Shown here: one piece after another, positions 55,397-58,999 of the stretch
Numbering within the stretch: position 1 is the first letter of the stretch
Layout: the number at the start of each line of letters is the position of its first letter
NCBI GenBank assembly: GCA_003833135.1
Contig: QZLH01000192.1
Location: forward strand, 30,575 to 94,574
Length of the DNA: 64,000 bases
Origin: Oehlia diaphana
Lineage: Eukaryota; Glomeromycota; Glomeromycetes; Glomerales; Glomeraceae
Reading direction: 5' to 3'
Made by a program: the position numbers and the translations under genes
Notes under the pieces: model-generated
The model's input: only the letters and a program-made list of their open reading frames with translations
What the model was told of the DNA's origin: nothing
Database searches by the model: none

Positions 55397-57921
55397 ATGG
55401 AATTTACTTACGTCCAAAGCCAAATTTATTTATTCGAGTTCGAACCTGTCGTAATAGAGGATATACGCGTTGTTGTTGGAATAGGTGAGCATATTGTTCA
55501 TTGATACCAATTTATTACCTTTTTTTTTAATAAGACGACATTCTTTCATTTAAATTCGTCAGATTTTGGAACAACCTTTTCGGTAAATTTACATACTAAT
55601 TTTTTATTTTCATTTGTATCCTTTAATTAACTGACATCTTAACTCTTTTCTTTCTTAGGGGTTTTCTTACGCCTATGCTAAGCCCGATAAGGCGAAAATT
55701 GAGATTATAGTGAACGATGATTGGCCAGGAATTAAAGGTTTTAAGAAAATCAATACCGTATTACAATATGACGAAGACTATAATTCTGTTACCGCATGGG
55801 GAGCTAAAGCGTTAGCCGGTGAACCCCCCAAAAGAAATAAAAAAAATAAGGATTTATCAAAACCGGTGGAATTGTTTAAATTTCATTTGGGAAGAGTTCC
55901 AGATAGTAAAAAACCCAAATTGCCAGCCAAAGTTACTCCTGAAAGAGCGATAACCGATTATCTTCGTGAAATGGGTATGTAGATTGTTTATGACTTTTAT
56001 ATTAAAAATGCCTTTGAAATTAATTATATAATGTAATTATTGGTTTTTTCTTTAGGAAAGGTAAGATGATAAAATGTATATTGCTTTTTAAGTATAAGAT
56101 AAATTGAGTTTATGATTTGATAGACAATTAAGCAAGAAATCGGTCGTCGCTGGCCTGGAGTTGATTTTTATAGTAACCTGCGAATTGTCGTCACTGTACC
56201 TGCCGGTAATTAGTTATATATTTGTAAAATACACATAATATCAGCATTTATAAAATTATCATTTTAGAGTTCACTGAGGATACAAAGACAATTATGAGAC
56301 AATGTTTATATAATGCCGGCTTGATCAAAAGTCTTGGTACACTAAGTCTTCAATTTACCACTGAACGTAAGAAGTTATTTTGAAATATTACTGCGGGGTT
56401 GTTTATAATGTATGTAAATAACACTTGATTTAAAATTCTTAGCGGAAGCCGCCGCGATCCATTGTATGAATGTGATGAAAGAACATAGATTAACAACTGG
56501 AGGTACACATTATGCCAATGAATCATTTTTTATTATTTCGACAACATTATAAATAATAAAATCGTTCATTTGATCTAAATTAGCGACATATTTGGTTGTC
56601 GATTGTGGTGGAGGTAAGGTTGCTTGCCAAAACCTCTCCAAAATCCTGCGATAAATTTCGGCAAGATTTTACTATATGTTTACTATAGTTTCGGCATTTT
56701 CCGTATAGGTTTCGGCAGTTATTAAGAAGGTTTCGGCAAGCAACCTTAGGTGGAGGAACCGTGGATTTAACCGTTAGAAAACTATTATCAACTGATCGAA
56801 TAGGAGAGACAACTGAGCGGTCAGGTGATTTTTGCGGCGGTACCTACGTTGATGATGAGTTTTTAAAATATCTTGGGAGTATAGTAGGAAAATCAGCGAT
56901 GAATATGCTAAAGGAAAAAAATTATGGTCAGGTTAATTATATGGTGCAGCAATTTTGTTCCCAAGTTAAAATTCCATTCACTGGTGAAAAGTCTGATTTC
57001 GAAACTATTGAATGGGACATCGATAGAAAATGTCCTGCTCTTAAGAAATATGTTACCGGGTCAGAAAGGGATCAATTATCGGAGGATGATTGGGTTATTG
57101 AACTCAATTTTAGAACTGTAAAATCATTCTTTGATCCGGTCATCAACAAGATTTTAGGGTTGATTGAACGACAGTTAGAGAAATGTTCGAATTGTAGTGT
57201 GATGTTTTTGGTCGGAGGTTTTAGTGAATCGCAATATCTTCAAAATAGAGTTAAACAAAAATTTGGCCATAAAATTAGCATAGCGGGTATGTTCGTTGAT
57301 TATTATATTTTTTTTTGAAAAAAGGTCGAATGCAAATCAATGATGATACTTCGTATATTACAGTTCCACCTCATCCACTTGCTGCGATTGTAAGCGGTGC
57401 ATGTGAATATGGACTTGATATGGATACCGTAACTACGAGAGTATTAAAATGGACATATGGAGTTCGAATTTGTCCTGAATGGGTAAGTGTCATTTAACTA
57501 AGTAATAGTAAAGCCAAAATTATCCCAAATAAAACCTAAAACTTTTTTCAAATAGAAACATGGTGACCCACCAAATCGTAAAACATTAGAAAATCGAATC
57601 TACAAATTTTCTTTGATGGCCAGTAAAGGGACAGAAGTGCGCGTGGACGAGGAATTTTCCACACGCTTATATCCAATTTATCCTGACCAAACCTCCATAA
57701 ATTTCACTTTCTTCTATACTTCCAAATATAATGCAAAATATTGTGATGAGCCTGAGATGAACTTATTGGGTAGTTTTAACGTTGATTTGCCCGATACTTA
57801 CCTGGGTGTAAATCGTCCAGTATTAATAACGTTATGTTTCGGTGCTATGGAAATTGTTGCAACAGCAAAGAATGAAACTAATGGTAAAGTCTATCGCACA
57901 ACGTTTTCTAATAAAGAGTGA
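55397..57921 (+). CDS. HSP70-like protein of the HSPA12 type
   Basis: HSP70-fold ATPase, cytosolic; HSPA12-like members often lack the classical peptide-binding domain. Eleven exons join in frame: 55397-55484, 55563-55582, 55659-55974, 56056-56060, 56124-56205, 56268-56366, 56443-56502, 56584-56613, 56750-57286, 57364-57482 and 57556-57921, for 573 residues. The ATPase motifs are in order: phosphate-1 loop DFGTTFSG (residues about 30-37, split over two introns), the connect region RIVVTVPAEF, phosphate-2 loop DCGGGGGTVDLT, and the adenosine motif MFLVGGFSES. Exon 2 is 20 nt and exon 4 only 5 nt (GAAAG), yet both are needed to restore the frame and motif. The phosphate-2 loop has two glycines more than the usual DxGGGT, explained by the transposon-derived intron at 56615-56748. 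The C-terminus is a short beta-rich region. Confidence 0.9.
56615..56748. mobile_element. Introner: inverted-repeat transposon acting as a spliceosomal intron
   Basis: The 134-bp element begins TAAGGTTGCTTGCC and its right end in reverse complement reads the same 14 bases. The inverted repeats extend over about 20 bp with one difference. It is flanked by a perfect 8-bp target duplication, GGTGGAGG, at 56607-56614 and 56749-56756. The intron boundaries fall on the junctions: the donor GTAAGG uses the last G of the left duplication, and the acceptor TTAG uses the first G of the right one, so intron 56614-56749 removes the element. The exons then keep one extra 6-nt piece, adding two Gly codons. 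Inside, TTTCGGCA recurs four times. An old intron is unlikely, given the intact duplication. Confidence 0.88.
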
Positions 57922-58331
57922 TACAAATAATTAATTTTCCTATTAGTTCTTAAATATCATTCATTATGAGAAGAAAATTTTAAATTTTATATAGGACCTC
58001 TGAATACATTAATTGGACGGATCAAAATTTTAGTACTATTGAACATAGTGTAAAACTAATTAACATGTATTCGGGGGTTTTCATCAAATATTCTATAACC
58101 ATAAAATATTGTATCATTAAATATTTCATAATATAAAATTATATCATTATATTTAAAATTATTTATGCAATCTATTCAGAAAATACATTTTTTCATTCAT
58201 AAAAATGTATACTGTACTTATTAATAAAATATTATTGTATAATAAATAAAAATATTAGTTTATGAAATAAAATTTACATAATATTAATAATTAATTGTAA
58301 AAAATTAAATTTACAATATAATACTAACTAC

Positions 58332-58561
58332 CCTAGCGTTGCCCCAAAAAAAAGCACTGGTGGCCGGCATTATGCGGAATTATGCACTGTCACGTGAACA
58401 GTGCGGTGACAAATAACTAGTGACGAATAAGTTTTTACCAACTCGAAAAAAACCAAGTCCCTCAGATAAATATAAACAATGAAAACACTGAGGGGCGTGA
58501 CGGATGTGATGATTTTTTTACATGGTCACGTGACCAGTGCTTTTTTTGGGGTAACGCTAGG
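58332..58561. mobile_element. Palindromic MITE, about 230 bp
   Basis: Inverted repeats of about 29 bp start CCTAGCGTTGCCCCAAAA on the left and CCTAGCGTTACCCCAAAA (reverse complement) on the right, both continuing to GCACTGG. The right arm runs on into GGTCACGTGACC, and a second near-palindrome, GCACTGTCACGTGAACAGTG, sits at about 58384-58403. Flanks CTA on both sides suggest a 3-bp target duplication, as in PIF/Harbinger-type MITEs. GC-rich compared with its surroundings. It lies in the spacer after the HSP70-like gene. Confidence 0.8.
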
Positions 58562-58999
58562 CTAGATTGCGGTCCTGAAAGTTCTAGCATAAATTTTGCG
58601 TAGTGTAAAATACGTTTTAATTCTTTCCCTAAAACAGATATGCCCCTGATTTGCGAATCTACAGTAGAATGCTGTGATGCCGTCGATCGATTTCTATTGC
58701 ATTATAGGTAACTGTATTAACAATGAAAAGGGGTATTATTTTTTGCGTATCTTTCCATTATTTAACTAACCTATATTCTAGATTACGCATTCTACCAATT
58801 TTGGATATTAATAAAAAAAACAACGGATACCCCTCATCATTCACTTTAGTAGTCAAGCGGTTAAATTTTCCGCGCAGTATTAATAAAGTATAAAAGGGTC
58901 TTGCCTTCAACGGATAACGACCTTTAACTGTTACTATTTAAAAAATTCCAAATAAAACTGCATAGTGCTTTTTGAAACAATTTACAAACTACAGATAAC
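58562..58999. other. Spacer, no gene seen
   Basis: Mixed-composition DNA between the MITE and the next gene. No reading frame of note. The last part is the 5' flank of the gene at 59000. Confidence 0.45.

What the first reader, a model, noticed from the sequence alone, without database searches (positions are those of the whole stretch)
56607..56756. An intron created by transposon insertion in the HSP70-like gene (introner)
Seen: a 134-bp inverted-repeat element, flanked by a perfect GGTGGAGG duplication, whose edges supply GTAAG and TTAG splice sites. Splicing removes it and leaves six extra bases, so the phosphate-2 loop becomes DCGGGGGTVD. Known: introner elements that make introns this way occur in several eukaryotes. 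Inference: this is a recent case, since the duplication is unmutated, and it altered a nucleotide-binding loop by two glycines.
Basis: partly seen in the sequence, partly recalled or inferred. Interest (0 to 1): 0.88.

Follow-up and report, generated by a model that had tools for sequence, protein, structure and literature searches.

The report
Young transposon forming a candidate intron
A tiny, recently inserted jumping gene sits inside a heat-shock-like gene of a root-symbiotic fungus and carries signals that could let the cell splice it out like an intron, a known route to new introns that still needs RNA evidence here.

Summary
A 134-bp inverted-repeat element (56615-56748) interrupts a Rhizophagus HSP70-like gene between perfect 8-bp duplications (GGTGGAGG). 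Its ends plus one G from each duplication make GTAAGG...CCTTAG. Removing 56614-56749 leaves +6 nt: DCGGGTVD becomes DCGGGGGTVD. The insertion is young: seven further copies are identical, and the closest paralogue has the empty site.

This is a hAT-like MITE family, not a demonstrated introner family. Insertions with readable duplications are not significantly more often in open frames than nearby random sites (median 55 vs 56 aa; 80 aa or more in 21 of 57 vs 29%). Splice-compatible duplications occur at chance frequency (11 of 56). A second candidate exists: a sense copy in a deaminase-domain gene, where splicing would add Pro-Glu.

Splicing is plausible (about 0.55) but unproven; the main rival is plain gene disruption. 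Kind: transposon acting as an intron, as in maize Ds.

The parts
56615..56748 (.). hAT-like MITE, 134 bp, TIR TAAGGTTGCTTGCC, no transposase
   Evidence: seven further identical copies among the nine 134-bp copies fetched
56607..56614 (.). left 8-bp target site duplication GGTGGAGG; its last G is base 1 of the donor GTAAGG
56749..56756 (.). right 8-bp target site duplication GGTGGAGG; its first G completes acceptor TTAG; it holds a second AG ending at 56755
56614..56749 (+). candidate intron, main prediction: 136 nt, GTAAGG..CCTTAG, net +6 nt (DCGGGGGTVD)
   Evidence: splice-site comparison with native introns
56614..56755 (+). alternative candidate intron: 142 nt, acceptor GGAG inside the right duplication, restores DCGGGTVD exactly
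56608..56749 (+). alternative candidate intron with weak donor GTGGAG, also restores DCGGGTVD
55397..57924 (+). host gene, my model: HSP70-like (PF00012 27.3 bits; PF06723 28.6 bits, both over cut-off), 11 exons if the element is spliced: 55397-55484, 55563-55582, 55659-55974, 56056-56060, 56124-56205, 56268-56366, 56443-56502, 56584-56613, 56750-57286, 57364-57482, 57556-57924
   Evidence: P0005 of R. irregularis is 99% identical and covers 70% of it

Best explanation
A hAT-like MITE recently inserted by cut-and-paste transposition into the phosphate-2 loop codons of an otherwise open HSP70-like gene in Rhizophagus (shown: insertion, 8-bp duplication, youth, empty paralogue). Because the TIRs read TAAGG...CCTTA, a duplication that begins and ends with G completes a strong donor (GAG|GTAAGG) and an acceptor (CTTAG), so the element can be removed as an intron (inferred). 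The spliceosome would normally take the first AG, giving 136 nt removed and a net gain of 8-2 = 6 nt, that is two extra glycines (inferred). A minority may use the AG 6 nt on, which restores the original protein (inferred). Splicing is probably partial, because the candidate intron is G+C-richer, T-poor before the acceptor, has no near YTNAY motif, and its TIRs can pair over the donor (inferred). The same +6 rule holds for any copy of the family with a G.{6}G duplication, whatever the element length (follows from the sequence).
For: TSD and TIR. Family and youth: (nine 134-bp copies, 28 of 36 pairs identical, mean identity 99.8%). Empty site in the closest paralogue, C787 (L099): TTGATTGTGGTGGAGGAACCGTGGAT. 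P0005, 99% identical, has the ordinary loop. Donor GTAAGG resembles native donors of the gene (GTAAGA twice, GTAAGT once, of nine); acceptor TAG is that of 7 of 9 native introns, CAG in the other two, none GAG. The frame stays open after splicing, and all other exons of my model are open. A second sense G.{6}G copy (L059, GCCTGAAG, 197 bp) lies in an OTT_1508-like deaminase frame, where it would add Pro-Glu; the R. irregularis homologue P0121 reads KKPEVM without it. Splice-compatible copies lie in frames of 100 aa or more in 6 of 11 against 8 of 46 others (Fisher p 0.018), as expected if unspliceable exonic copies are purged, but see against.
Against: No RNA. The last 20 nt before the acceptor trinucleotide are 20% T against 35-65% in the nine native introns (all pyrimidines 45%, equal to the lowest native); the nearest YTNAY is 67 nt from the intron end, whereas 7 of 9 native introns have one within 32 nt (the other two at 58 and 64); the candidate is 136 nt and 39% G+C against 62-81 nt and 16-27%. 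The TIR stem covers the donor except its first G in the predicted fold (z -1.98). Of the best 120 relatives none was found with a longer loop (114 ordinary, 6 unmatched), so a 5-glycine protein may not work. The 6-of-11 excess is weak: two of the six frames are antisense, sense only is 4 of 11 (p 0.22), the window case was the finding itself, and random G..G/C..C sites are already in such frames more often than others (31% of 800 vs 20% of 1500).
Confidence: 0.55

Rival explanations
1. Plain insertional inactivation: the element is not productively spliced, the frame stops after residue 246 within the element, and this HSP70-like copy is a dying gene in a large, redundant family.
For: Unspliced frame stops after residue 246; weak branch-point and T-tract context; donor in a stem; very large paralogous family, so a loss is tolerable (151 matching stretches); another copy (L007) interrupts a kinase-domain frame with a duplication that cannot give GT..AG.
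Against: Strong donor and usual TAG acceptor; frame kept; no other disabling change seen in the gene model, though the insertion may be too young for decay.
Confidence: 0.35
2. Splicing occurs but mostly through the downstream AG (56755) or the upstream GTGGAG donor (56608), so the protein is unchanged and the insertion is silent.
For: Both give exactly DCGGGTVD; strong conservation of that loop would favour such isoforms.
Against: GAG acceptor and GTGGAG donor are unlike the nine native introns of the gene; the first AG is normally preferred (general knowledge).
Confidence: 0.1
3. The family is a true introner, selected or biased for making introns across the genome.
For: Two sense, splice-compatible copies in Pfam-recognised frames (window and L059) and two more in sense frames of 102-122 aa without a Pfam match (L049, L054); splice-compatible copies are over-represented in long frames, 6 of 11 against 8 of 46; TIR ends match splice consensus.
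Against: G..G 5 and C..C 6 of 56 duplications against 5.6 and 4.3 expected from end composition; target consensus GTTATAAC puts C, not G, before the donor; frames across the sites reach 80 aa in 21 of 57 against 29.3% of 1660 control sites (two-sided p 0.24); composition explains part of the 6-of-11 excess; only 10 perfect-TIR copies in the three length ranges searched are splice-compatible on either strand.
Confidence: 0.12

Closest known systems
Maize Ac/Ds (hAT) insertions spliced as introns (Dennis 1988; Wessler 1991; Giroux 1994)
   Same: hAT-type ends with 8-bp duplications inserted in an exon and acting as an intron; titles of these three seen in the reference list of PMC3260210, their texts not read
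   Different: Here a 134-bp MITE in a fungus, with each main splice site formed by the TIR plus one duplicated G; no RNA evidence
Introners (Gozashti 2022, PMC9860276, Fig. 2F legend, Aureococcus)
   Same: 8-bp TSD; element carries both splice sites and the mRNA gains codons (12 bp there, 6 here)
   Different: No shown set of spliced copies here and no significant genic enrichment; the ascomycete families there lack TSD and TIR
Transposon insertion at AGGT protosplice sites (reviewed in PMC3443670)
   Same: Duplication of the target contributes to both splice sites (passages)
   Different: Here the duplication gives only one G to each main site; the exact-restoring option uses the AG inside the duplication
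MITEs and hAT elements of Rhizophagus irregularis (PMC11075540)
   Same: Same genus; hAT and MITE classes in its TE library (passages)
   Different: Its main text has 0 occurrences of intron, exon or splic

Membership tests
hAT-like MITE | 8-bp target site duplication | tested here: met
   57 of 65 fetched copies have a duplication with at most one mismatch (56 perfect); 7 do not match in register and 1 is cut by a contig end
hAT-like MITE | short terminal inverted repeats of hAT type (YARNG start, motif recalled; Ac/Ds C/TAGGGATGAAA seen) | tested here: met
   TAAGGTTGCTTGCC, perfect 14 nt
hAT-like MITE | under 1 kb, no transposase, several length classes sharing ends | tested here: met
   71 end pairs; 67 of 134-266 bp, and four of 851-1076 bp that hold 624-759 N each
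hAT-like MITE | mobilised by a hAT transposase with matching ends | tested here: inconclusive
   150 Dimer_Tnp_hAT matches in the genome, a capped count, none linked to this TIR; no autonomous copy found
Introner | multi-copy, near-identical element (TSD and/or TIR in many families) | tested here: met
Introner | several copies are introns whose similarity runs to the splice sites | tested here: inconclusive
   Two candidates in Pfam-recognised frames (window, L059); no annotation or RNA available
Introner | enrichment in genes (161 of 175 genomes in PMC9860276) | tested here: inconclusive
   Open-frame proxy only: median 55 vs 56 aa; 21 of 57 vs 29.3% of 1660 control sites at 80 aa or more, two-sided p 0.24
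Introner | splicing in RNA | not testable with these tools
   no reads held

The most novel reading that the evidence does not exclude
A recently active hAT-like MITE family in an arbuscular mycorrhizal fungus works as a frame-preserving intron maker: its ends turn any G.{6}G target into a GT..AG intron that adds exactly two codons (8-2 nt) whatever the element's length and in either orientation of the element. It is creating new introns now, one in an HSP70-like nucleotide-binding loop and one in a deaminase-domain gene. It would be an introner-like source in Glomeromycota.
Probability: 0.25. Interest if true: 0.6.

Novelty: new member of a known kind. Interest (0 to 1): 0.42.

Why it matters
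Origins of new introns are rarely caught before decay. Here the element, its duplication and an empty homologous site are all intact, with a second candidate in the same genome, so the first step of intron birth (efficient, partial or failed splicing; +2 codons or exact restoration) could be read directly from RNA of one fungus.

Tried and rejected
Introner family as such: not adopted as a filing, because the open-frame proxy and the duplication statistics give no significant support. That 2 of 3 insertions in Pfam-recognised frames (HSP70, deaminase, kinase) are splice-compatible in sense was not used as evidence: the window case was the finding itself. The 6-of-11 against 8-of-46 excess in long frames is reported but weak, for the reasons given under evidence against.

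Autonomous partner: the 851-1076-bp pairs are assembly gaps. Dimer_Tnp_hAT matches near some ends (C24, C51, C1462, C552) were noticed by eye in the lists, not tested, and are not used.

Conserved old intron: rejected; paralogous exons read through the site.

Paper searches: 'introner' with 'Glomeromycota' 0 papers; 'introner' with 'hAT' as whole words 1 paper, listing only; 'Rhizophagus' with 'transposable element' and 'intron gain' 2 papers, listing only. Searches were otherwise seen as listings, apart from the papers named in the report. The library lacks most subscription journals. PMC45394 (Giroux) is not held.

Full report
What is there. The element TAAGGTTGCTTGCC...GGCAAGCAACCTTA occupies 56615-56748 (134 bp) between two perfect copies of GGTGGAGG. 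A scan of the window for perfect 14-nt inverted pairs (arms with all four bases, starts 60 to about 500 bp apart) bounded by an identical 8-bp repeat found only this site. In my gene model, drawn from the sequence and not checked by RNA, the host gene runs from 55397 to 57924 on the + strand with nine native introns. Its product matches HSP70 (PF00012, 27.3 bits, cut-off 20.6) and MreB_Mbl (28.6 bits, cut-off 27). P0005 of Rhizophagus irregularis is 99% identical and covers 70% of the query, so the genome is R. irregularis or very close; the assembly itself is unnamed (108.8 Mb, 1672 contigs).

The family. The TIR 14-mer occurs 189+190 times, the reversed control 0. Two diagnostic ends of this subfamily occur 96 times each, with up to two mismatches, and pair into 71 elements, leaving 25 unpaired ends of each kind. 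Of the 71, 67 are 134-266 bp and four of 851-1076 bp contain runs of N. A sister group of about 244 bp shares the TIR. I fetched 65 of the 71. Of these, 57 have an 8-bp duplication with at most one mismatch (56 perfect), 7 do not match in register, and 1 is cut by a contig end. The duplications share a palindromic preference, GTTATAAC, 47-51% per position when both strands are pooled. Nine 134-bp copies are 99.8% identical on average, 28 of 36 pairs identical, so this is a recent burst. TIR, TSD length and size make it a hAT-like MITE. No transposase was linked to it, although 150 hAT dimerisation-domain matches (a capped count) exist in the genome.

Empty sites. The closest paralogue in the genome (C787, 70%) reads TTGATTGTGGTGGAGGAACCGTGGAT across the site and appears to share the intron just upstream. 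Of 90 HSP70-like stretches that start near the loop in the capped list, 87 run through it; one of the other three is the window gene itself. Of the best 120 of 1204 protein relatives, a pattern search found the 3-residue loop in 114 and no match in 6; no match was longer. So the insertion, and any intron there, is new.

Splicing options. (i) 56614-56749, donor GAG|GTAAGG and acceptor CTTAG: 136 nt out, +6 nt, DCGGGGGTVD. (ii) 56614-56755, acceptor GGAG inside the right duplication: exact ancestral DCGGGTVD. (iii) 56608-56749, weak donor GTGGAG: also exact. Retention stops the frame after residue 246. The first AG and the TAG form favour (i): the nine native acceptors are 7 TAG and 2 CAG, and native donors include GTAAGA (twice) and GTAAGT. 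For any copy with a duplication G.{6}G the net gain is 8-2 = 6 nt, so the frame is kept whatever the element's length; C.{6}C does the same for the other strand. This follows from the sequence alone.

Against efficient splicing. The candidate intron is 136 nt and 39% G+C, against 62-81 nt and 16-27% for the nine native introns. The 20 nt before the acceptor trinucleotide are 20% T against 35-65% (all pyrimidines 45%, equal to the lowest native). The nearest YTNAY lies 67 nt from the end, while 7 of 9 native introns have one within 32 nt and the other two at 58 and 64. The TIRs pair in the predicted RNA and cover the donor apart from its first G (z -1.98, 6 of 200 shuffles fold as well). I therefore put productive splicing at about 0.55, a judgement and not a computed value.

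Is it an introner family? In 57 insertions the longest open frame across the empty site has a median of 55 aa against 56 aa at 1660 random sites in the flanks of the longer loci; 21 of 57 reach 80 aa against 29.3% of controls (two-sided p 0.24). Duplications of G..G (5) and C..C (6) among 56 match the 5.6 and 4.3 expected from end composition. One result points the other way: splice-compatible copies lie in frames of 100 aa or more in 6 of 11, other copies in 8 of 46 (Fisher p 0.018). But two of the six frames are antisense, sense only is 4 of 11 (p 0.22), without the window copy it is 5 of 10 (p 0.04; sense 3 of 10, p 0.39), and random G..G/C..C sites are themselves in such frames more often (31% of 800 against 20% of 1500). 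Searches for perfect-TIR pairs with G before the donor and after the acceptor end gave 6, 2 and 2 copies in three length ranges, both strands.

Second candidate. The 27 frames of at least 64 aa (the HSP70 one as the whole protein) were scanned against Pfam: three pass a curated cut-off, HSP70, OTT_1508-like deaminase (L059) and protein kinase (L007); four more have only matches below cut-off. L059 is splice-compatible in sense: GCCTGAAG, 197-bp element, would add Pro-Glu. A search with its upstream piece found three proteins: P0121 of R. irregularis (84% over 55%) reads RCLKKPEVMGR without interruption, P0123 reads KKTNVTER there, and P0122 lacks the stretch. L007 is not splice-compatible. So there are two candidate new introns in recognised frames, plus two sense frames without a Pfam match (L049, L054), and no firm sign of bias.

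Known background. Gozashti 2022 (PMC9860276; abstract and the Results section read) describes introners with TSDs and TIRs, one Aureococcus family that carries both splice sites and adds 12 bp, and finds ascomycete ones without TSD or TIR. The review PMC3443670 (passages) lists transposon insertion as an intron-gain route, with Zea among its cases. The titles of three Ds-as-intron papers were seen in the reference list of PMC3260210 (passages), texts not read. R. irregularis hAT and MITE classes appear in PMC11075540 (passages), whose main text has no occurrence of intron, exon or splic. 'Introner' with 'Glomeromycota' gave no paper.

Verdict. Observation confirmed. It would work like a maize Ds intron or the Aureococcus introner, but membership in an introner family is not shown, and splicing awaits RNA.

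Noticed in passing
window 58328-58565: Another inverted-repeat element downstream of the gene: 25-nt arms (92%) CTACCCTAGCGTTGCCCC.. / ..GGGGTAACGCTAGGCTAG, 188 nt between the arms; possibly a second MITE type, not counted genome-wide.
   Followed up: no
L059 2001-2197 (C180:66863-67059): 197-bp copy of the same family in a deaminase-domain (PF14441) frame, sense orientation, duplication GCCTGAAG; would splice to a Pro-Glu duplication.
   Followed up: partly
L007 1501-1634 (C751:46268-46401): A 134-bp copy identical to the window's interrupts a protein-kinase frame with duplication ATTCCCAC, which cannot give GT..AG there.
   Followed up: partly
L012, L013, L018, L023-L026, L038: Sister MITE group of about 244-248 bp with the same TIR but different inner sequence.
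   Followed up: partly
L039, L040, L061, L069: Assembly gaps (runs of N) lie inside copies of the inverted-repeat element, giving apparent lengths of 851-1076 bp.
   Followed up: yes
G000 C209, C414, C608, C999, C103, C369: Large clusters of HSP70-like paralogues; some matched stretches hold stops, which may be introns or decay.
   Followed up: no
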